A DNA stretch of 64,000 nt from positions 1 through 64,000 of the forward strand of contig JABDHD010000006.1 of the NCBI GenBank assembly GCA_013285685.1, in the 5' to 3' direction. The DNA is from Bacteroidota bacterium (GTDB lineage: Bacteria > Bacteroidota > Bacteroidia > Sphingobacteriales > Sphingobacteriaceae). Under the pieces are notes generated by a model. The model was given only the letters and a program-made list of their open reading frames with translations, ran no database searches and was not told the origin of the DNA. Made by a program: the position numbers and the translations under genes. This document shows, piece after piece, positions 15,667 to 25,094 of the stretch. Numbering within the stretch: the first letter of the stretch is position 1; the number at the start of each line of letters is the position of its first letter.

Positions 15667-16412
15667 TCCTGATAAGCATTTTTTTTGTTTTGTTAGTAGC
15701 TGTTATTATCGTAACTGCGCTTTTATATCATAGCCGCAGAAGGCTCCATCAAATCGAAGTCGCCAATTTTCAAACCATATTAACCCAAACCCAGCTCGAA
15801 GTGCAGGAGCAAACCCTGCAAACCATCGGCACGGAACTGCACGACAATGTGGGCCAGCTATTGAGCCTCACCTCGCTTACGCTTAACTCCATCGCGCTGA
15901 CCGATAACCCCAAAGTGCAGCGGAAAATAAATGAATCCATCGAGCTTACGCTGCACGCTATCGGCGAAATGCGGCAGCTGGGGCATTTACTGCAGGGCGA
16001 CAGGCTGGTGGCCGTGGGACTGGTAGAAGCAATAAGGCAGCTGGTGAGCTGGATGGAGCGTACAGGCAAATACGAGGTTATTTACACCGCCGGCGATGAT
16101 GTGCCCCCTGGCGCCAATGCCGACAAGGATCTCATTATTTTCCGCATTACACAGGAGATTTTTAACAATATCATCAAACACGCGGCAGCCTCGCACATCA
16201 ACATCAGCCTGCAACATGCCGAAGGTGTTTTAAATCTCCGGGTGGCGGATAACGGCATAGGCTTTCCCCCGACCGGCGACGTGGCGCCATCACGCCAGGG
16301 CATGGGCCTGCAAAACATCCACAAACGCGCCGGCATTATCGGCGGCGAGGTAAGCATCAGCTCCAGCCCCGGCCAGGGAACGCGGATCACGGTTTGTATA
16401 CCTTACCCGTAA
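15630..16412 (+). CDS. Sensor histidine kinase, NarX/LiaS-type (HisKA_3 + HATPase)
   Basis: A 260-residue kinase with one N-terminal membrane helix (~10-33), a coiled linker, and a HisKA_3 dimerisation domain with H71 in IGTELHDNVGQ. The HATPase domain shows QEIFNNIIKHA (N box), ADNGIGF (G1) and GMGLQNIHKRA (G2). Start ATG at 15630 is chosen over an in-frame Met at 15609. It has no extracellular sensor loop, so it fits the 7TM-like partner encoded upstream. No LuxR-type response regulator follows; the only such gene in the window is the decayed copy at 59828-60204. The 3' end overlaps an antisense gene remnant. Confidence 0.9.
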   Translation: MHDTKPEIFYSVILISIFFVLLVAVIIVTALLYHSRRRLHQIEVANFQTILTQTQLEVQEQTLQTIGTELHDNVGQLLSLTSLTLNSIALTDNPKVQRKINESIELTLHAIGEMRQLGHLLQGDRLVAVGLVEAIRQLVSWMERTGKYEVIYTAGDDVPPGANADKDLIIFRITQEIFNNIIKHAAASHINISLQHAEGVLNLRVADNGIGFPPTGDVAPSRQGMGLQNIHKRAGIIGGEVSISSSPGQGTRITVCIPYP

Positions 16413-16521
16413 ACCCCGCCAGCGAAATACCCGCATCCGCCGCCGCATCCGTATACGCCACACTTTCAAACGCGTGCCAGATGGGGTCTATCCTAAAATC
16501 TACTATATCTGTAAATAATTT
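16387..16521 (-). pseudogene. Truncated copy of the 102-residue protein gene at 18007-18315
   Basis: Read on the minus strand this segment encodes about 44 residues (from KLFTDIVDFRIDP to GISLAGF) matching the C-terminal half of the protein at 18007-18315 (EVFTDIIDFRIDP to GISLAEF), and the DNA is also clearly alike. Upstream of the match the frame dissolves into a GGGTCTCCGGAACGG-type repeat, so the 5' half is missing. Its last bases overlap the 3' end of the sensor kinase gene. Confidence 0.75.
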
Positions 16522-16661
16522 GAAGGTATGGCGCACTCCGTTTTCGCCGGGTCTCCGGAACGGCGCCCTGGGGCCCATGCCCCTTGATGCGCAAAAAGGG
16601 CCAAAGGTTATTTTATTTGAGGACGATACATCGTATATTTGTGCTAAAGGAGAGATTTTAT

Positions 16662-16874
16662 ATGCCGGTTGCACTCAATTCTGCACAATTGGAAATCCTG
16701 AAACTGTTTAGGAATGACCAGACTGAAGAAGAACTTCAGGAACTAAAATCATTGCTTACAGCCTGGCTTGCCGCTAAGGTGACATTTGAAGCGGATAAAG
16801 CTTTCCGGGAAAATGGCTACACTGCCGCTATTTTTGAGAAATGGAAACAGGAACACTTCAGGAAAACGGCGTAA
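16662..16874 (+). CDS. Antitoxin-like small protein paired with PIN toxin
   Basis: A 70-residue acidic, helical protein (MPVALNSAQLEIL, TEEELQELKSLLTAWLAAK, FEKWKQEHFRKTA), encoded 3 bp upstream of a PIN-domain gene. This size and order are typical of type II antitoxins that bind and neutralise a PIN ribonuclease. An AAAGGAGAG ribosome-binding site lies just before the ATG, which supports this start over the Met at 16584. Confidence 0.78.
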   Translation: MPVALNSAQLEILKLFRNDQTEEELQELKSLLTAWLAAKVTFEADKAFRENGYTAAIFEKWKQEHFRKTA

Positions 16875-16877
16875 CTA

Positions 16878-17288
16878 ATGACTGTTGTTCTTGACTGTAA
16901 TATTCTGGTGATGTGCCTAACATCCGGTTCGCCATACCATATTATCTATCAAGCATTGGTAAAAGGCAAATTTCAACTGGTGGTTTCCAACGATATTTTA
17001 TTAGAGTATGAAGAAATAATACAACGAAAATACAGTATTGCCACCGCCCGTGCATTCGGCAGTTTGTTGGATGAACTGCCAAACGTACATTACCTACACA
17101 CTTATTACCAATGGCAATTGATCACAAAAGATTCGGATGATAATAAATACTGTGATTGTGCCATTGCAGGACAGGCCGATTATGTTGTCACAGAAGACCG
17201 GCACTTTGATGTGTTAAAAAATGTTCCTTTTCCTTCCCTTACCGGTGTCGGTATCAATCATTTTTTAGAAATACTGCAATCTGTTTAG
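16878..17288 (+). CDS. PIN-domain toxin (type II TA)
   Basis: A 136-residue PIN-family ribonuclease toxin. The acidic active-site residues sit in VVLDCNILV (D6), LLEYEEII (E near 36), DSDDNKYCDCAIAGQADYVVTEDRHF, matching the four-acid pattern of the 'putative toxin-antitoxin system toxin component, PIN family' group. It is coupled to the antitoxin upstream (3-bp gap). The pair lies between the two copies of the 102-residue protein gene and next to a tandem repeat, which suggests insertion. Confidence 0.88.
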   Translation: MTVVLDCNILVMCLTSGSPYHIIYQALVKGKFQLVVSNDILLEYEEIIQRKYSIATARAFGSLLDELPNVHYLHTYYQWQLITKDSDDNKYCDCAIAGQADYVVTEDRHFDVLKNVPFPSLTGVGINHFLEILQSV

Positions 17289-17324: not shown

Positions 17325-17908
17325 CGTTTTCGCAGGGTCTCCGGAACGGGACCCTGCGCTCCTGGCCCGATGATACCCGACGCAGGCTCCTCTTCGAGTT
17401 AAGGTTTACCCACAAAATAGCCCAAAAAGGGGGAATCTGCTGCCAATACGTAATCGCGCGCGGATGTCACACTGAGGCACTCGAAGTGCGGCGCGCAAAG
17501 GCCAGCCTATTTCGAGGGATTTCCGGCGCCTAACGAGTATAGCGGCCGGCGAACCCACCGCACTCCTTCGAGTGCCTCAGGATGACAACGCGCTTATTAT
17601 CAACCTCATGCATTATCGTTTTCGCAGGGTCTCCGGAACGGGACCCTGCGCTCCTGGCCCCATGATACCCGACGCAGGGTCCTCTTCGAGTTAAGGTTTA
17701 CCCACAAAATAGCCCAAAAAGGGGGAATCTGCTGCCAATACGTAATCGCGCGCGGATGTCACACTGAGGCACTCGAAGTGCGGCGCGCAAAGGCCAGCCT
17801 ATTTCGAGGGATTTCCGGCGCCTAACGAGTATAGCGGCCGGCGAACCCACCGCACTCCTTCGAATGCCTCAGGATGACAACGCGCTTATTATCAACCTCA
17901 TGCATTGC
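17325..17908. repeat. 292-bp tandem duplication with internal inverted repeats
   Basis: Two copies (17325-17616 and 17617-17908) differ at only a few positions. Each contains an inverted pair: CTGAGGCACTCGAAG...TGCGG facing CCGCACTCCTTCGAGTGCCTCAG-like sequence about 90 bp later, plus a shorter CGCAGGGTCTCC...GGGACCCTGCG stem at the start. The second copy is followed by the 102-residue protein gene. No coding capacity is visible. A degenerate relative of the first stem occurs at 16540-16580. Confidence 0.9.
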
Positions 17909-18006
17909 CACTTATATAGTTCGTGACTGCGACGCCCGCAATAATGCTCTGTCGAATTTTGTGGGTAAAACTAAATCTTCGAGAGACCCTGCTCAAACAA
18001 ATCACC

Positions 18007-18315
18007 TTATCCGCTTTTTCCAATAATCCCCATAAACTCTGCCAGCGAAATCCCCGTATCCGACGCCTCATCCGTATACGCCACACTTTCAAACGAAGGC
18101 CAGGTGGGGTCTATCCTAAAATCTATTATATCCGTAAATACTTCGGGCAGCTGCCATTGCGCGGCGTAAAAATATTCGCCGTAAATCAGTTTGGATTGGA
18201 TGAGCTTTTCCAATTCCGGCAATGCAACACCATCCGGGTTGGCAAATACAACCGAAATAAATTTTTTATAGTTGCCGCTGCAACGATAGCGGTAATTGAA
18301 TTGGATGTTTGGCAT
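18007..18315 (-). CDS. Conserved-looking small protein of unknown function (intact copy)
   Basis: A 102-residue soluble protein with no signal or membrane segment (MPNIQFNYRYRCSGNYKKF..., FANPDGVALPELEKLIQSKLIYGEYF). I do not recognise the family. That it is a real gene is supported by the truncated relative at 16387-16521, in which differences mostly keep the amino acids similar (e.g. IIDFRIDP/IVDFRIDP, ESVAYTD). It lies beside the restriction-like operon but 52 bp from the HNH gene's 3' end. Confidence 0.65.
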   Translation of the reverse strand: MPNIQFNYRYRCSGNYKKFISVVFANPDGVALPELEKLIQSKLIYGEYFYAAQWQLPEVFTDIIDFRIDPTWPSFESVAYTDEASDTGISLAEFMGIIGKSG

Positions 18316-18366
18316 GTGCCAAGATAGGTAGAAGGATAAGGCTTGTCAATCGACTATAAGTCACCT

Positions 18367-19134
18367 TTAGGACTTTTTAAAAACCTTTTCGTTGTGATAC
18401 TCGAGAAATTCCCGCACCGGTACAAACCTTGTTGGCTTGATAATATCTTTGTTATGAACGTTTAAAATAAAACCAAGCGTTTCGGTTTTTTTGCTTTCCA
18501 GCAATAATGGAGATACTTTAAGTTTATAATCAGGAGTAATAGTGATTAAACCCTTGTCGAATGCTTTGTCATGAAGAGCGTTTAAACATAATCCGTTATG
18601 AGGGTTTACCCGATTTACCGTATCAACTGACCATGGAATAATATGACTGGCCACTAATAATTGAGGAATTGAAATGCCTGTGATGCAACATTTATTTTCA
18701 TATGAACATAAAACCGTTGATCTAAAAAACCCTTGATTTACACGGATTTTTACAAGTGCTTCCCGATCAATGCCTTCCTTGGTAATTTTGATTTCGTCAA
18801 TATCGCTGATGTCCTCTACCGGTACGTGCTTGTGTTGAGCCAATAGAAACTCACTTTCATAAGCTAGTTTATCCCAATTATTATTAAATTCTTCCCAAAT
18901 TACTTCTTCACCTTTACTTCCGTGCCCCATCCCACTCACTCCACGCTTTTGCAACGCAGGATCAAGCCGTGCAAAATTCGCCAGTTTTAATGCGACTGCT
19001 GCGTTACTTCTACCAATTAATAACGCAAACGCCTTAATCTGTTTATTGCTTGCATTAATTTTTGTAAAAGTGACTTTGCAATAAAGATTGAAGGCAAGTA
19101 TTAATTCTTCTCTTGACCAGTTGTTTTTGGGCAT
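18367..19134 (-). CDS. HNH nuclease (HNH_2), last gene of the methyltransferase/GHKL operon
   Basis: A 255-residue protein with a C-terminal HNH_2-type nuclease: CCITGI, then ASHIIPWS, NPHNGLCLNALHDKAFDKG (the H...N...H core), a fold frequent in restriction endonucleases. The N-terminal half (SREELILAFNLYCKV, IGRSNAAVALKLANFARLDP) is a helical region common to this HNH subgroup and may handle DNA or protein contacts. It starts 1 bp after the receiver-domain gene, so it is translationally coupled to it. It is the likely DNA-cutting effector of the operon. Base composition is AT-rich like the rest of the operon. Confidence 0.87.
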   Translation of the reverse strand: MPKNNWSREELILAFNLYCKVTFTKINASNKQIKAFALLIGRSNAAVALKLANFARLDPALQKRGVSGMGHGSKGEEVIWEEFNNNWDKLAYESEFLLAQHKHVPVEDISDIDEIKITKEGIDREALVKIRVNQGFFRSTVLCSYENKCCITGISIPQLLVASHIIPWSVDTVNRVNPHNGLCLNALHDKAFDKGLITITPDYKLKVSPLLLESKKTETLGFILNVHNKDIIKPTRFVPVREFLEYHNEKVFKKS

Positions 19135-19135
19135 T

Positions 19136-20758
19136 TTATTCGATGTATGAAATTCCTATTCTGCTAATATGGCTAGCCAACCTTGAAAGTATATCTACAA
19201 ATGGTTCATTTCTTATTCGAAATATTGGTTTTTTCAATTTTTTTTCATTAGTCTCAATGTCAATCGATTTCATTAGCCTAAAATCAAATACAGGCTTATA
19301 ACAATCTTGTCGAATTTTTATTAAAGGTATTTGATTGTAAGCAGCCTCTGAATCTTTGATGAATTCAGAATATTTTTCGGGAACTAAAAGACCTGGTAAT
19401 AATCGAGACTTCAACCACTTTTCCTGCACATAATCACATATGGGAGTTACTTCAAGTTCAATAATTATAAATTTATTTAGTTCTGCATCATCTAATATAC
19501 AATCCCCCTCCGAGTTAATAACAATTGAGTTTGGTTTAAAATAACTTTTTAAAATTCGTTTTTTATTGTCTGACTTCAAACTTGTTTTTACATAAACATT
19601 GCCTGGTTGAATAGATTTTCCAGTATTAAAATCAATTAACAGGCGATTATTTATCTCTGGCTTAATAGATAAGTACTCCTCTATAAGAGATTTAACTTGT
19701 TCTTTTTCGATATCTGTCCGCCCTTTGCTTGCAAGTTTTTTTATATCACCAGTACCTTTGAAGCCGGCTGGAACAAGTACATTATTAATATAAAGTTGGT
19801 AATTCCCGGATCCAGCTGTCCATTTTATTTTAAATTCGTTGGCGTCTACTTTTTTTACGAAAGAAATTTTCTCACGATTTATTTGAATTATATCTGGCAA
19901 TTTAAGCTCATTTGAAATTTCATTTTCAACAATATCTAAAAAAGTATTATTTAATGTTTTTAGGGCGTTTTTAATTAATTCGTGTTCGCTGACTGTCTCA
20001 ACGGTTTTCCCTAATTGTGCATGAGCCATTCGATAAATACTGTATTCTAAATTATCTTGCCAATACTCATTCATTTTATGCAAATCAGCATAACTTTTAA
20101 CCGTTTCACCAGACGCACGATGGATCATTCTTTCCCAAATTGTAAATAAACTAAATGCAGCTAATGAACTCAGATTGCTTTTTAACTCTTCATATATTAA
20201 ATCAACAGCATTGTGTTTAGCTCTTTTAACAACCGGTACAAAAAGTTTTTGGTCGACAACATTTTTAATAGCATTAATGTCATCAACACTAAGTCTGGTT
20301 TTCAAGGCGATTTCTATTTCTTCACTTAAATTCTCTTTAACAGTGTTATCACTTACCGTTTCAAAGTAAGAGGACTTCTTTAATCTTATTACCTCAACCG
20401 GATTTCTTGAAAATGTTTTTGATCTCACTTGCTTTTCAAGTTCATCAGAGTTTAGAATTTCAGTTGTACTCCAAATAATTAAAACGTAGGGGCCGTTGTT
20501 ATCCGGAATCGTTTTTTCAAGGATTCGTAAAATGTTCTGCGCATAAGAGTGTGCGTCACTCGGGCCAAATAGTTGAATATCTACAAATGCAAATCTTACC
20601 TTTTGAATTGGGATTACCGGTAACGAAGTATCTCTGCCAGTAAAATAAGTAGTAGCGAATCCTTTTTTAGAAAGCAGTTGAATAAGGGGTAGGGCCTCTT
20701 CAATTTTATCATCAATAATTAAAATAGAGCCATCTGACGGAAGTTGAAAATCGTCCAT
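19136..20758 (-). CDS. Receiver-domain protein with large uncharacterised C-terminal region
   Basis: A 540-residue protein. Residues ~10-130 look like a response-regulator receiver: acidic pair D16-D17 in ILIIDD, phosphoacceptor D60 in FAFVDIQ, T98-region in IIWSTTE, and Lys127/128 in VIRLKK. The remaining ~400 residues are mostly helical to ~290, then mixed with basic patches, and match no DNA-binding output domain I recognise. It lies 1 bp after the GHKL/histidine kinase gene and 1 bp before the HNH gene. The likely role is to receive phosphate or conformational signal from the kinase and control the nuclease (inference). Confidence 0.7.
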   Translation of the reverse strand: MDDFQLPSDGSILIIDDKIEEALPLIQLLSKKGFATTYFTGRDTSLPVIPIQKVRFAFVDIQLFGPSDAHSYAQNILRILEKTIPDNNGPYVLIIWSTTEILNSDELEKQVRSKTFSRNPVEVIRLKKSSYFETVSDNTVKENLSEEIEIALKTRLSVDDINAIKNVVDQKLFVPVVKRAKHNAVDLIYEELKSNLSSLAAFSLFTIWERMIHRASGETVKSYADLHKMNEYWQDNLEYSIYRMAHAQLGKTVETVSEHELIKNALKTLNNTFLDIVENEISNELKLPDIIQINREKISFVKKVDANEFKIKWTAGSGNYQLYINNVLVPAGFKGTGDIKKLASKGRTDIEKEQVKSLIEEYLSIKPEINNRLLIDFNTGKSIQPGNVYVKTSLKSDNKKRILKSYFKPNSIVINSEGDCILDDAELNKFIIIELEVTPICDYVQEKWLKSRLLPGLLVPEKYSEFIKDSEAAYNQIPLIKIRQDCYKPVFDFRLMKSIDIETNEKKLKKPIFRIRNEPFVDILSRLASHISRIGISYIE

Positions 20759-20759
20759 A

Positions 20760-22862
20760 TTATTTCTTAAAGGCTAATAATAACTTTGCTCCATTTTTAA
20801 AATCAGCAGGAATATCGTGCTCATTAAATTCTGGAAAAATTAACTTTCCCTTTTGGCTGTTCATCACCTCATGAGCTAAATGCAGCCCGAGGCCCATACC
20901 ACCGGGTTTATCCGATATAAATGGTTTAATTGCTTCTTCCGGTGGAATGCTAAAACCCGGGCCATTGTCACAAATAATTAAACTTAAATAGCCATCTATA
21001 TCTTCAAGAATATCTATAAATATTTTTTTATTTTTAGTATTTGCATAGTTCTGCCACCATATCGAATTATCAATAAGATTTATAAGCGTACTTGTAACCA
21101 AATTATGAGAACATTTGATAGTGGTATTTATATTAACACGCTCTTTGTATTTCTTAATTACTTCAACTTTATGTGCCTTTATTCTGAACTGAATATTTGA
21201 TAATGATTGATCTACAATTTCAATTAGATCTTCTCTTGATTTAGCACTTTGTTTAATGACACCGGCGTAATCGTTGACTGTTTTGTACAATGTTTTTATT
21301 AATGAATTAATATGATCATAAGAAGGCTTTTCTTCTATGGCGGTGACTAACTCATTCATCATGTGAATTATTTCGTGAATAACTATTCCTAAACTTAATC
21401 CGGCGCTTGAACTTCTTGTATAAATCTCACTAATGGTTTTGTAATCTTCCTCAATATCATTTATCGATTTCAATAATTCATCTTGTAACTCTCCTTTCGG
21501 TATTTTGCTCGATATCTTGTCCTGTAAAATGCGAAGATTACCTATGACTGGTTGATTAACAGCAGTTGGTGTATAAAATTTTCTTACTTTTTCTTTATCA
21601 AGGTTACGCTGCGTTAAAATCTTATCTAATGTAAAACGAATAGAAGATAAAAATTTAAAATAGGCCTCATTCTCAACAAAGCCTTCTCGATTGGTTTTTT
21701 CTTCGAGGTCAAAACTTGTAGCTCGATCAATATCTACTGCCCCAATTATAATATTATTACTGATCGTTTTACCCGGTTGATTAACCCGCATAATGTCAAG
21801 ATTCAGCCAGTCATTTCCAGGCTCCCCATAGTCGTAAACACGTATTCCGCTTCTAAATACACGTATTCCGCCATTTATATTCAAATAGTCTCTGAAACCT
21901 TTTTTATCTGATACCCCTAGAGATAAAATATTGCTTTCCCTATCAAAGATTAATAGTTTGAATTTTACCTTTCCAATTTTATATTTTGACAAATCAACAT
22001 CTACTTGTTGTTTCTTGCCAGATTCTTCATCCCTAATTTGTTCGACCATTCTAACATTTTCTAGAACCTCTTTTCTTTTCTCAAGCTTGGTCATTGTATC
22101 CCATGGTCTGAATTCATATTCCAATTTACTTATTACATTGTTTTCAATTATAGCTTCCGCATAATAAAGAGCATAATCTTGAATGTCATCAAAGGAAAGC
22201 AGTCCTGAAACCCAGTCCTGCTTATCAATTTTGAAAAACACTTTAAATGAATCCAGGGCTTCAAATGGTGAACTTAGCGAAGTTACTGCCCGATAAAGCT
22301 CCCTGATTGTGCCTCTGGACCATTTATTTTTTAGTTTTTTTATGCTAATTATGGTACCTGTCTTTCCATTTATAAAATGCTGAGGAGTGTTCCTTTCGGT
22401 CATCCGCACTTTAATGTTTTTCAAAAGATCGTCTTTTTCAAAATCTTTCCAATTTATTTTTAATAAGACTTCCTTTTTGTCAGCCATTTTTGTGACCATC
22501 TCGATTTCAAAGCCAAGTTTGTGAACACCGAAGCGGCCTATTCCTTTTTCCCCGATAGGTATTCTTGTCGCTTTGGGGTTATCTTTGAGAGCTTTGATTA
22601 TCTTCAATTTATGATCGCTTCCAGGTTGCATCCAAACAGTGGAAATGATGGTTGCATCCATGCCTATTCCGTCATCTTCAATTATTATTTCTCCAATGTC
22701 AGGGTTTTCTAAATTTTTCATCGAAACAGCTACCTGGGAGGCATAGGCATCATAAGAATTTTTGATGATTTCTAAAAGAGCAATACTTTCGCTTCTAATT
22801 AGCTGATCACCCAACTGAAGTAATAAACGTGCCTTTGGCTGGAAACTTAATAGTTCACTCAT
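20760..22862 (-). CDS. Double GHKL protein: Hsp90/MORC-like ATPase fused to histidine-kinase core
   Basis: A 700-residue soluble protein with two ATP-binding modules. The N-terminal one has E31-N35-D39 in EIIKNSYDA, DDGIGM at 63-68 and GEKGIGRFG at 104-112, the Hsp90/MutL/MORC pattern, followed by an S5-like middle (GGIRVFRSGIRVY near 331-343). The C-terminal one is a kinase: H496 in GIVIHEIIHMMNE, N599 in NLIDNS, DNGPGF at 632-637 and GGMGLGL at 654-660. No membrane helix is visible, so the signal is internal. Its start overlaps the methyltransferase gene by 8 bp and its end abuts the receiver gene. This suggests a cytoplasmic sensor of DNA state or infection that phosphorylates the neighbour. 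Confidence 0.85.
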   Translation of the reverse strand: MSELLSFQPKARLLLQLGDQLIRSESIALLEIIKNSYDAYASQVAVSMKNLENPDIGEIIIEDDGIGMDATIISTVWMQPGSDHKLKIIKALKDNPKATRIPIGEKGIGRFGVHKLGFEIEMVTKMADKKEVLLKINWKDFEKDDLLKNIKVRMTERNTPQHFINGKTGTIISIKKLKNKWSRGTIRELYRAVTSLSSPFEALDSFKVFFKIDKQDWVSGLLSFDDIQDYALYYAEAIIENNVISKLEYEFRPWDTMTKLEKRKEVLENVRMVEQIRDEESGKKQQVDVDLSKYKIGKVKFKLLIFDRESNILSLGVSDKKGFRDYLNINGGIRVFRSGIRVYDYGEPGNDWLNLDIMRVNQPGKTISNNIIIGAVDIDRATSFDLEEKTNREGFVENEAYFKFLSSIRFTLDKILTQRNLDKEKVRKFYTPTAVNQPVIGNLRILQDKISSKIPKGELQDELLKSINDIEEDYKTISEIYTRSSSAGLSLGIVIHEIIHMMNELVTAIEEKPSYDHINSLIKTLYKTVNDYAGVIKQSAKSREDLIEIVDQSLSNIQFRIKAHKVEVIKKYKERVNINTTIKCSHNLVTSTLINLIDNSIWWQNYANTKNKKIFIDILEDIDGYLSLIICDNGPGFSIPPEEAIKPFISDKPGGMGLGLHLAHEVMNSQKGKLIFPEFNEHDIPADFKNGAKLLLAFKK

Positions 22863-24081
22863 TTAATAAATATAGAAGTTTGTCGGCTATTATCTGCGCC
22901 ATTAAAGGTGGCACAGCATTGCCTATTTGCCTAAATGCGGCAGTTCTGTTTTTACTTTCAATCATTCCTTCAAAATAAAAGTCATCTGGAAAGGATTGGA
23001 TTCTTGCGGCTTCGCGAACGGATATTGAGCGTGTTTGAGATTTATCGGGGTGTATAAAATGATGTCCATCGTTCGCGATATGGGCTATCATGGTGTGCGG
23101 TACATTGCCAATAACTTTGAACCTGTCCAAAAAATCTGTCGTGTTTTTTTGTGTCCGGTACTCCTCATCAATTTCATTGTTCTTTATTCTTTTGCCCTCC
23201 GCCATTTGATCAATAGCCATGCTGTAGATATTTAAATCCTTTGCATTATGCGGCCGGGTTACATGCAGGGTCGTGAACTCAATTCCATTTCTGATATTGT
23301 GATTATCCAAATACTCAGATTTATCAGTCTGATAATTGCACCAACGCGCCCCCTCGTTCGGCCCTAAAGAGGGTAGGTCATTAAACAGGTCGCTGCTTGA
23401 CCAGTTATTAATAACGGGTTTAAATTCAGGATACTCAAACGTTATATCTTCTCTCCAACCTATTATAATCAGTCGCTCCCTATTTTGAATAACGCCAAAA
23501 TCCCAGGCGTTCAATTGCCTGTCATCAATTCGATAGCCGATTGACGTAAAGTATTCTCTTAGTTCGCGATAGTGTATGCCTTCATCTGAGCTTTTTAGTC
23601 CCGGGACGTTTTCAAACACAAAAAGTTTTGGTTTATATTTCAAAAGATATTTACCATACTCTTTATATAGTTTTTTCCTTGGGTCATCTATCTTATGTTT
23701 TAAGGCAGAACGGCCGGTTATCGAGTACGCCTGACAGGGAGGCCCACCAATTACTAGATCAACTTCCTGATCGCCCTTTAGGCAATCAATCTTATTAAAA
23801 ATTGCTTCATTAGTCTCTTGGCCAATTTTTTCATTTATGACTGAGTCTAAAACTTCTTTGGGGATGCTTTTATAAAACTCTTTCCGGGTAATCTCACCCT
23901 TTAGATATCTGTGGTATATCTCAATTTGATTTTGTGATTTTAGATAATAGTATGCTGCCCTTGTCTTTAAAGTAAAGCAAGCAGATGTGTTTGATTCAAC
24001 ATGGGCAATAGGGTTGAACCCGGCCCTTTTGAACCCTTCAGAAAGGCCGCCGGCGCCTGCAAATAGGTCTATAAATTGCAC
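22855..24081 (-). CDS. DNA (cytosine-5)-methyltransferase
   Basis: A 408-residue C5 methyltransferase. Motif I is FIDLFAGAGGLSEGF near 3-17, the catalytic motif IV is GGPPCQAYS with C116, motif VI is FENVPG (155-160), motif VIII is QNRERLIIIG, and motifs IX/X give RQIGNAVPPLMAQ near 389-401. The region between motifs I and IV is longer than usual (helical, residues 45-100). Vsr is encoded 52 bp upstream, the usual pairing for a Dcm-like enzyme making T:G mismatches. The recognition sequence cannot be read. It is probably the self-marking part of the system. Confidence 0.93.
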   Translation of the reverse strand: MQFIDLFAGAGGLSEGFKRAGFNPIAHVESNTSACFTLKTRAAYYYLKSQNQIEIYHRYLKGEITRKEFYKSIPKEVLDSVINEKIGQETNEAIFNKIDCLKGDQEVDLVIGGPPCQAYSITGRSALKHKIDDPRKKLYKEYGKYLLKYKPKLFVFENVPGLKSSDEGIHYRELREYFTSIGYRIDDRQLNAWDFGVIQNRERLIIIGWREDITFEYPEFKPVINNWSSSDLFNDLPSLGPNEGARWCNYQTDKSEYLDNHNIRNGIEFTTLHVTRPHNAKDLNIYSMAIDQMAEGKRIKNNEIDEEYRTQKNTTDFLDRFKVIGNVPHTMIAHIANDGHHFIHPDKSQTRSISVREAARIQSFPDDFYFEGMIESKNRTAAFRQIGNAVPPLMAQIIADKLLYLLNE

Positions 24082-24133
24082 GCCTAAAAATACGTAAGAA
24101 AAAACTAACTAAAGTACTGAAATTATACCCATT

Positions 24134-24553
24134 TCAACACTTTTTTATTTCAACAACAATATTTTTCAGGGTTTCCTCCTTAAATGAAGGTTTAATTTCA
24201 CATTCCCATAGCTTAATTATCTTCCATCCGAGAGCAGTCAAGCGACTTTCAGCAAGCACGTCATTGGCAATATTCGTCCCAATCTTATTCACCCACCATT
24301 CAGTCCGGGTTTTCGGAACAACAAAATATTTGCACCCCTCATGCCCATGCCAAAAACAGCCGTGTATAAAAATTATGGTTTTGTATTTGGGCAATACAAT
24401 ATCCGGCTTGCCCGGCAAATCCTTTACATGCAGCCGGTACCTAAACCCGTTTTTATGCAGAAACCGGCGCACCAGCATTTCAGGCCTGGTATCCTTGCTG
24501 CGTATACGTGACATGTTATAGCTGCGCGTCTCGGTGGAGTGTACATCGGCCAT
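24134..24553 (-). CDS. vsr: Very short patch repair endonuclease
   Basis: A 139-residue Vsr nuclease, which nicks 5' of T in T:G mismatches left by deamination of 5-methylcytosine. Family marks are RSYNMSRIRSKDTRPEMLVRR, the PD-x-V core LPGKPDIVLPKYK, the zinc/active-site segment FIHGCFWHGHEGC, and WW-V-KI. The start MADVHSTETRS (24551-24553) is chosen by family alignment; a hydrophobic upstream extension to 24583 is unlikely. A TACTTTTG word on the minus strand just before the ATG resembles a -7 box but lacks correct -33 spacing. It leads the operon vsr-dcm-GHKL-receiver-HNH. Confidence 0.93.
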   Translation of the reverse strand: MADVHSTETRSYNMSRIRSKDTRPEMLVRRFLHKNGFRYRLHVKDLPGKPDIVLPKYKTIIFIHGCFWHGHEGCKYFVVPKTRTEWWVNKIGTNIANDVLAESRLTALGWKIIKLWECEIKPSFKEETLKNIVVEIKKC

Positions 24554-24659
24554 AAGGCAAAAGTAATATACAATTAAATACAAAAATCAGCCCGGATTTC
24601 ATCCATCGCCCCGGGGGGCCGGTTACAGGAAGGATGTTAAGTTCCGAGTTTGTTAAATA

Positions 24660-25094
24660 TTAAAGATTGAAGTTCTTCAGGTCGCTGGTATTAAAAATCC
24701 TTTTGAATTGCTTCTTTTTCAGCCCGCTGTAAAGGGTTTTATCCCCTGTCCACAGTGTGCCTTTGAGATAAAGTGTTAAAGCCACAAAATCGGTATCGTC
24801 TATGTCTATATCTTCAGTGAACTTTAGTGCCTTTTTCCAAATGGTTTGAGGTATAAGATCTTCATCAATAAATTTCAACCGTGAAAAAAGATGAAATCGC
24901 GCGTCGACTAAGTGCTGTTCAGAAAGCTTTGAGATTTTTTTAAGTTTTTCCCGATGGTTTTGAATTTCAAAGCGCATGTAACTGCAACTATAAAATTCAA
25001 AATTACTTTTGGAGTTAATCAGTAATTCGCCGATGGTACTATTAGTGTTTAAAAGGCCACTAAATATGATATTGGTATCAACAACAACTTTCAC
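24660..25094 (-). CDS. PIN-domain toxin (second TA pair)
   Basis: A 144-residue PIN nuclease: VVVDTNIIFSGLL at the N-terminus supplies the first Asp, then EDIDIDDTDFVALTLYL and TLWTGDKTLYSGL carry the later acidic residues. It overlaps the upstream small gene by 4 bp, the standard antitoxin-toxin arrangement. It is distinct in sequence from the PIN toxin at 16878-17288. Its position upstream of the vsr operon puts one TA pair on each side of the restriction-like operon. Confidence 0.87.
   Translation of the reverse strand: MKVVVDTNIIFSGLLNTNSTIGELLINSKSNFEFYSCSYMRFEIQNHREKLKKISKLSEQHLVDARFHLFSRLKFIDEDLIPQTIWKKALKFTEDIDIDDTDFVALTLYLKGTLWTGDKTLYSGLKKKQFKRIFNTSDLKNFNL

What the first reader, a model, noticed from the sequence alone, without database searches (positions are those of the whole stretch)
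20760..22862. Two GHKL ATP-binding modules in one soluble protein
Both an Hsp90/MutL/MORC-type site and a histidine-kinase-type site are complete, with a phosphoacceptor His between them. A clamp-type ATPase that could close on DNA, fused to a kinase output, would be a direct way of turning DNA sensing into phosphorylation (inference).
Basis: partly seen in the sequence, partly recalled or inferred. Interest (0 to 1): 0.65.

Follow-up and report, generated by a model that had tools for sequence, protein, structure and literature searches.

The report
Restriction system with clamp-type histidine kinase
A DNA-restriction operon in a Bacteroidota genome encodes one soluble protein that joins a MORC/MutL-like ATP-driven clamp to a complete histidine kinase, with its receiver partner next door; this pairing was predicted in 2021 but never tested as far as I could find, and this copy belongs to a branch that the existing database models miss.

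Summary
On the minus strand, 22862-20760 encodes a 700-residue soluble protein with two complete GHKL modules and an invariant phosphoacceptor histidine (H496) between them. An AlphaFold2 model matches MORC3/Hsp90/MutL over residues 8-430 and sensor histidine kinases over about 480-700. They sit in one tight operon: Vsr, C5 methyltransferase, clamp-kinase, receiver, HNH nuclease, on an AT-rich island. Of 46 homologues, 44 have a receiver-like gene directly downstream, and all 16 of the window's clade have a C5 methyltransferase nearby. The nuclease varies (HNH, HaeII, EcoRII-type). This is the architecture predicted as a two-component system (HEF_HK/Response_reg_2) tied to restriction-modification by Bellieny-Rabelo et al. 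2021. The window's pair fails both of that paper's Pfam models and forms a separate, fully supported clade. That clade also lacks the N/T of the HisKA phosphatase motif (0 of 16). Best reading: phosphorelay-gated restriction, with the MORC-like ATPase as sensor. DNA sensing, phosphotransfer and the output are inferred; no experiments were found.

The parts
20760..22862 (-). Clamp-kinase gene: 700-aa soluble protein with N-terminal MORC/MutL-type GHKL-S5 module, DHp helices, C-terminal HK-type GHKL module
21573..22841 (-). N-terminal GHKL + S5 (transducer) module, residues 8-430; motif I ALLEIIKNSYDA with catalytic Glu E31
   Evidence: HATPase_c_3 E 3.5e-15; Morc3 Z 23.0, Hsp90 Z about 21, MutL 1b63 Z 18.9; invariants
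21261..21491 (-). DHp (dimerisation and phosphoacceptor) helices, about residues 458-534
   Evidence: long helices in the model; profile alignment to the H-box region of ThkA, FixL, ZraS
21375..21377 (-). H496, phosphoacceptor histidine
   Evidence: invariant in 32 of 32; aligned with H-box His of solved kinases
20763..21245 (-). C-terminal HK-type catalytic ATP-binding module, residues 540-700 (N, G1, F and G2 boxes)
   Evidence: HATPase_c E 9.6e-13; ThkA 3a0t Z 19.3, ZraS Z 19.5
19136..20758 (-). Receiver-domain partner, 540 aa, one base after the clamp-kinase stop
   Evidence: receiver residues D16, D17, D60, K128 invariant in 15 of 15
20159..20737 (-). Receiver domain of the partner, residues 8-200; phosphoacceptor D60 at 20579-20581
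   Evidence: model; receiver domain 3lua Z 11.0, Spo0F Z 10.5, CheY about 10
19139..20158 (-). Unassigned C-terminal output region of the partner (conserved W208-E209, N370, C441-D442, R533, G535)
   Evidence: no Pfam family
22855..24081 (-). C5-cytosine DNA methyltransferase, overlaps the clamp-kinase start by 8 nt; GGPPCQ and ENV motifs present
   Evidence: DNA_methylase E 3.4e-62; motifs
18367..19134 (-). HNH_2 endonuclease with HNH motif residues kept
   Evidence: HNH_2 E 4.5e-14; PADLOC HNH E 1.2e-87; sequence
24134..24583 (-). Vsr very-short-patch endonuclease
   Evidence: Vsr E 5e-34, TIGR00632 over cut-off

Best explanation
This is a type II-like restriction-modification operon whose nuclease step is controlled by a dedicated cytoplasmic two-component relay. 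The methyltransferase marks host DNA. The clamp-kinase is a dimer; its MORC/MutL-like N-half binds ATP and closes, most likely around or on DNA in a state that marks it as foreign or damaged. Closure rearranges the long DHp helices so that the C-terminal kinase module phosphorylates H496. The phosphoryl group passes to D60 of the neighbouring receiver protein, whose C-terminal region then switches on restriction, most likely by acting on the HNH nuclease. In this clade the HisKA phosphatase residue is missing, so the kinase probably does not actively reset the receiver and activation would be committing. Shown by sequence or model: both folds, both complete ATP sites, the phosphoacceptor His, the receiver with its Asp, operon layout and its conservation. 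Inferred: DNA as the signal, clamp closure, coupling of the two ATP sites, phosphotransfer, and the nuclease as output.
For: Two complete GHKL modules with invariant catalytic residues, including the MutL-type general-base Glu E31 in the N-site only. Folds: Morc3, Hsp90 and MutL for 8-430; sensor kinases for 480-700. H496 aligned to known phosphoacceptors. Partner has receiver fold and residues. Receiver-like gene directly downstream in 44 of 46 homologues, gap -79 to +27 nt; several score as Response_reg. C5 methyltransferase found near 36 of 46 and all 16 of the window's clade. Restriction nucleases in the same loci: HNH, EcoRII-C, HaeII. N-half also resembles the BbrUII/HgiDII restriction enzyme family, residues 16-195, E 3.9e-19. 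+4 position after H496 is H, K, Q or R in 16 of 16 of the clade.
Against: No DNA-binding, ATPase, kinase or phage data exist for any member that I could find. The receiver's output region has no identified fold, so its target is a guess. Some homologues sit with other modules (MBL-fold protein, PAPS-reductase-like genes) and no C5 methyltransferase, so the relay is not tied to one output. L105 has no receiver gene within reach.
Confidence: 0.5

Rival explanations
1. The relay regulates transcription of the restriction-modification genes (timing of methyltransferase and nuclease expression) instead of licensing the nuclease protein.
For: Most two-component systems act on transcription; the 2021 authors proposed control of R-M systems directly or indirectly (PMC8011034). 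The receiver protein has a large uncharacterised output region.
Against: No DNA-binding output domain is recognised by Pfam in the receiver partner or in its relatives. Not decisive, since the output region was not folded alone.
Confidence: 0.2
2. The N-terminal module senses nucleotide levels or phage-induced nucleotide change, not DNA, and the kinase reports this.
For: The 2021 paper suggested NTP sensing for the N-terminal HATPase_c_3 (PMC8011034).
Against: The N-half is not a bare nucleotide pocket: it includes an S5 domain and matches clamp ATPases over 300 residues, including MORC2 solved with DNA.
Confidence: 0.12
3. The N-half acts as a MutL-like matchmaker that recruits or activates the adjacent Vsr or HNH nuclease directly, and the kinase half only tunes this.
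For: MutL stimulates Vsr in E. coli (established knowledge); Vsr lies in the same operon or close by in many loci.
Against: Kinase residues and the receiver partner are as strictly kept as the N-site; several loci have no Vsr in reach.
Confidence: 0.13

Closest known systems
HEF_HK / Response_reg_2 two-component-like system (PF19191/PF19192; Bellieny-Rabelo et al. 2021, PMC8011034)
   Same: Same order of domains (HATPase_c_3, DHp, HATPase_c), adjacent receiver gene, C5 methyltransferase upstream, Vsr and HNH_2 nearby. Full-length profile match to bona fide members (prob 100, E 1.2e-48). A genome of the same genus carries Vsr, methyltransferase, HEF_HK, Response_reg_2, HNH in the same order (L097).
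   Different: The window pair does not reach either Pfam model. Proteins are 700 rather than about 970-1000 aa. Separate clades, each 100/100. Receiver partners are only weakly alike (hhalign prob 67).
paraMORC families of R-M systems (Iyer, Abhiman, Aravind 2008, PMC2292703)
   Same: N-terminal GHKL with S5 domain, R-M neighbourhood with C5 methyltransferase, Vsr and HNH, no MORC-defining motif.
   Different: The 2008 paper describes no kinase half or receiver partner.
MORC ATPases (MORC2, MORC3)
   Same: Best structural match of the N-half.
   Different: MORC-specific S5 motif absent in 32 of 32; MORC has no kinase half.
HisKA-type soluble sensor kinases (FixL, ThkA, ZraS)
   Same: H, N, G1, F and G2 boxes and fold.
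   Different: Sensor part is a clamp ATPase; phosphatase N/T at +4 missing in the window's clade.
BbrUII/HgiDII family restriction enzymes (NF050001)
   Same: N-terminal GHKL residues 16-195 (E 3.9e-19).
   Different: Rest of the protein not matched; score far under the family cut-off (68.6 against 550).

Membership tests
HEF_HK / Response_reg_2 system (2021) | HATPase_c_3 + DHp + HATPase_c in one soluble protein | tested here: met
HEF_HK / Response_reg_2 system (2021) | DHp recognised by Pfam HEF_HK (PF19191) over cut-off | tested here: not met
   No match in the window protein at E 0.1 nor in the genome over cut-off; 1 of 32 homologues at E 0.034
HEF_HK / Response_reg_2 system (2021) | Partner recognised by Pfam Response_reg_2 (PF19192) | tested here: not met
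HEF_HK / Response_reg_2 system (2021) | Adjacent gene with receiver residues (acidic pair, Asp, Lys) | tested here: met
HEF_HK / Response_reg_2 system (2021) | C5 methyltransferase and type II R-M neighbours | tested here: met
MORC family proper | GhXhhpXXRhl motif in the S5 domain | tested here: not met
   0 of 32; motif from PMC2292703
paraMORC (1-5) | N-terminal GHKL with ATP motifs plus S5 domain, in an R-M neighbourhood, without the MORC motif | tested here: met
   which of the five subfamilies was not tested
MutL/Hsp90/GyrB-type hydrolysing GHKL ATPase | General-base Glu in motif I (ExxxN) | tested here: met
   E31 and N35 invariant
MutL/Hsp90/GyrB-type hydrolysing GHKL ATPase | ATP hydrolysis with N-terminal dimer closure | not testable with these tools
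   only a monomer could be modelled
HisKA two-component histidine kinase | H box plus N, G1, F, G2 boxes | tested here: met
HisKA two-component histidine kinase | E/DxxN/T phosphatase motif after the His | tested here: not met
   +1 is E but +4 is H, K, Q or R in 16 of 16 of the clade
HisKA two-component histidine kinase | Autophosphorylation and transfer to a receiver | not testable with these tools
   needs biochemistry
Type II restriction-modification | Methyltransferase plus endonuclease in one operon | tested here: met
DISARM class 2 | DrmA, DrmB, DrmC next to DrmMII methyltransferase | tested here: not met
   Methyltransferase scores as DrmMII (E 9.8e-151) but no neighbour scanned scores as DrmA/B/C

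The most novel reading that the evidence does not exclude
A MORC/MutL-type DNA clamp works as the sensory domain of a histidine kinase, so that capture of unmodified or invading DNA is turned into a phosphoryl signal that, in a kinase without phosphatase activity, irreversibly licenses a restriction nuclease: a two-component system that senses DNA.
Probability: 0.3. Interest if true: 0.85.

Novelty: new variant of a known kind. Interest (0 to 1): 0.5.

Why it matters
Classical type II restriction acts without signalling. A conserved, widely spread pair of clamp-kinase and receiver next to methyltransferases and interchangeable nucleases would mean that restriction can be gated by a phosphorelay whose sensor handles DNA itself. 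It would also give bacterial MORC-type ATPases, whose role is unknown, a direct read-out (phosphorylation of a defined partner). The clade described here is missed by the Pfam models, so the system is more common and more varied than the annotation suggests (31 of 395 sampled Bacteroidota genomes hold a relative).

Tried and rejected
Chance motif matches: rejected by E-values, 32-sequence invariance and models. DISARM class 2: suggested by the methyltransferase's best PADLOC match, dropped for lack of DrmA/B/C among the neighbours. MORC family proper: dropped, motif absent. Known PADLOC defence system for the clamp-kinase or its partner: no hit. Direct Pfam membership of HEF_HK/Response_reg_2: not met. 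Fold of the receiver's C-terminal region: the model is of moderate confidence there (mean pLDDT 73.7, pTM 0.43) and fold searches were filled by the receiver domain, so nothing was concluded. A scan of GTDB contigs with the single protein found only two close relatives. Literature on experimental work: none found in the held library. DefensePredictor (PMC13092281) lists HATPase and REC in the legend of a figure of unvalidated predicted systems; whether it is this family cannot be told from the text.

Full report
OBSERVATION. The stretch 20760-22862 is one ORF on the minus strand, ATG to stop, 700 aa. Pfam finds HATPase_c_3 at residues 26-163 (E 3.5e-15) and HATPase_c at 590-674 (E 9.6e-13), both above the curated cut-offs. 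The protein has no stretch hydrophobic enough for a membrane helix.

HOMOLOGUES AND RESIDUES. Relatives occur in 31 of 395 sampled genomes of the same phylum, on plasmids of Burkholderia, Rhizobium, Agrobacterium, Campylobacter and others, and in two faecal phage-labelled contigs. The closest are 66% and 59% identical, in a marine biofilm MAG and in a Hellea isolate, an alphaproteobacterium, which together with the AT-rich island (30-41% GC against about 46-55% outside) points to horizontal transfer. In an alignment of 32 the N-terminal site has the MutL/Hsp90-type motifs with the general-base Glu (E31xxxN35xxD38), D63-G65-G67, G104-K106-G107-G109-R110 and G169; H496 is invariant; the C-terminal site has N595/N599, D632-G636 and G657-G659. 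All 32 match both Pfam ATPase models. In a profile alignment H496 falls on the H-box His of ThkA, FixL and ZraS. A Glu general base stands in the N-site only, which suggests (inference from known GHKL enzymes) a hydrolysing clamp in front and a phosphotransfer module behind.

STRUCTURE. AlphaFold2 with 22 sequences gave mean pLDDT 82 and pTM 0.76. Foldseek's first hits are MORC2 with DNA and Hsp90, and HK853-RR468 for the rear part. VIA-align gives Morc3 5ix2 Z 23.0 (302 residues, 3.5 A), Hsp90 about Z 21, MutL 1b63 Z 18.9 for residues 8-430; and for the rear half kinase 8a52 Z 20.2 (204 residues, model 479-699), ThkA 3a0t Z 19.3. A dimer could not be modelled here.

THE MISSING PARTNER. One base after the stop starts a 540-aa gene (19136-20758). 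Its first 200 residues have the receiver topology, match receiver domains (3lua Z 11.0, Spo0F Z 10.5, CheY about 10), and keep D16, D17, D60, a W-S/T and K128 in 15 of 15 partners. The rest (residues 201-540) is conserved but unassigned. In 44 of 46 homologues a gene with a receiver-like N-terminus (hydrophobic strand ending in D-D or D-E, later strand ending in D; judged by eye, five of ten scanned also score as Response_reg) lies directly downstream on the same strand, with a gap of -79 to +27 nt. Of the two exceptions, one contig ends 665 nt further on; the other (L105) has none.

OPERON. Order on the minus strand: PIN, Vsr, C5 methyltransferase (overlaps the clamp-kinase by 8 nt), clamp-kinase, receiver, HNH_2 nuclease. 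The methyltransferase, clamp-kinase, receiver, HNH order is the same in the two closest relatives (L034, L035). All 16 members of the clade have a C5 methyltransferase within 3.5 kb, and 36 of all 46 have one in the stretch read. The nuclease differs: HNH here, EcoRII-C in L039 and L057, HaeII in L044, Vsr in others. A relay that stays while the nuclease changes suggests a control module rather than the cutter itself (inference).

RELATION TO WHAT IS KNOWN. Iyer et al. 2008 described paraMORC ATPases in R-M operons with C5 methyltransferases, Vsr and HNH, but not the kinase half. Bellieny-Rabelo et al. 2021 described HATPase_c_3 + HEF_HK + HATPase_c proteins beside Response_reg_2 genes, C5 methyltransferases, Vsr and HNH_2, and proposed a two-component system linked to R-M. 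That is this architecture. However, the window pair matches neither Pfam model, and neither do its close homologues (1 of 32 at E 0.034, 0 of 15). Bona fide HEF_HK proteins found in the same phylum align over their whole length with the window's clade (hhalign prob 100, E 1.2e-48) and have the same operon layout; L097, from a genome of the same genus, has Vsr, methyltransferase, HEF_HK, Response_reg_2, HNH in that order. In a maximum-likelihood tree the window's clade of 16 and the HEF_HK clade of 8 are each supported 100/100 and separate. The receiver partners of the two clades are only weakly alike (prob 67, E 5e-5). So it works like the 2021 system and is its homologue, but by the published domain models it is not a member; I call it a new variant.

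A DIFFERENCE THAT MAY MATTER. HisKA kinases that also dephosphorylate their receivers carry E/DxxN/T from the residue after the His (established knowledge). In the window's clade +1 is Glu, as needed for autophosphorylation, but +4 is H, K, Q or R in 16 of 16; in more distant relatives N or T occurs at +4 in six of sixteen. This predicts a kinase without phosphatase activity and hence a one-way switch (inference).

MECHANISM. Best reading: ATP-driven closure of the MORC-like half on DNA triggers autophosphorylation at H496, transfer to D60, and activation of restriction through the receiver's output region. Steps shown: folds, residues, operon, conservation. Steps inferred: DNA as ligand, coupling, phosphotransfer, target. 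Rivals: transcriptional control of the R-M genes; NTP sensing (proposed in 2021); direct MutL-like recruitment of Vsr or HNH. The MORC2-DNA match and R-M context favour DNA, but nothing here measures it.

LIMITS. No experimental study of any member was found in the held library, which lacks most subscription papers and preprints. Receiver assignments in the 46 loci rest partly on inspection. The tree is midpoint-rooted and some rows have long branches.

Noticed in passing
L055:2885-6678 (second paralogue in the window's own genome, G000 contig C49); also L051, L043:11230-14500, L061: A divergent sub-clade of the clamp-kinase is followed by a short (218-248 aa) receiver protein and then an MBL-fold (DVGHGNST...SHADQDH) protein, without a C5 methyltransferase next to it in three of the four: a second, different system type using the same relay.
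   Followed up: partly
L106 and L111: Two further clamp-kinase/receiver pairs sit next to PAPS-reductase/DndC-like genes (ISGGKDSAAL motif), hinting at a link with DNA phosphorothioation-type systems.
   Followed up: no
window 17325-17614 and 17617-17906: Near-perfect (99%) tandem duplication of 290 nt just outside the low-GC island, sharing a 52-nt piece with 16537-16588.
   Followed up: no
window 16406-16520 and 18029-18143: 115-nt repeat (88%) carrying the same gene tail (TDI[VI]DFRIDP...SFESVAYTD), flanking a small ORF plus PIN-domain pair at 16584-17288.
   Followed up: no
window 18000-25000: GC falls to 30-41% against about 46-55% outside, matching the extent of the operon: horizontally acquired island. 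No tRNA gene in the window.
   Followed up: yes
L038:2808-4448: One 546-aa ORF matches both the C5 methyltransferase and Vsr: a natural methyltransferase-Vsr fusion directly upstream of the clamp-kinase.
   Followed up: no
window 24660-25094: PIN_2-domain gene directly upstream of Vsr on the same strand, absent from the relatives' loci searched.
   Followed up: partly
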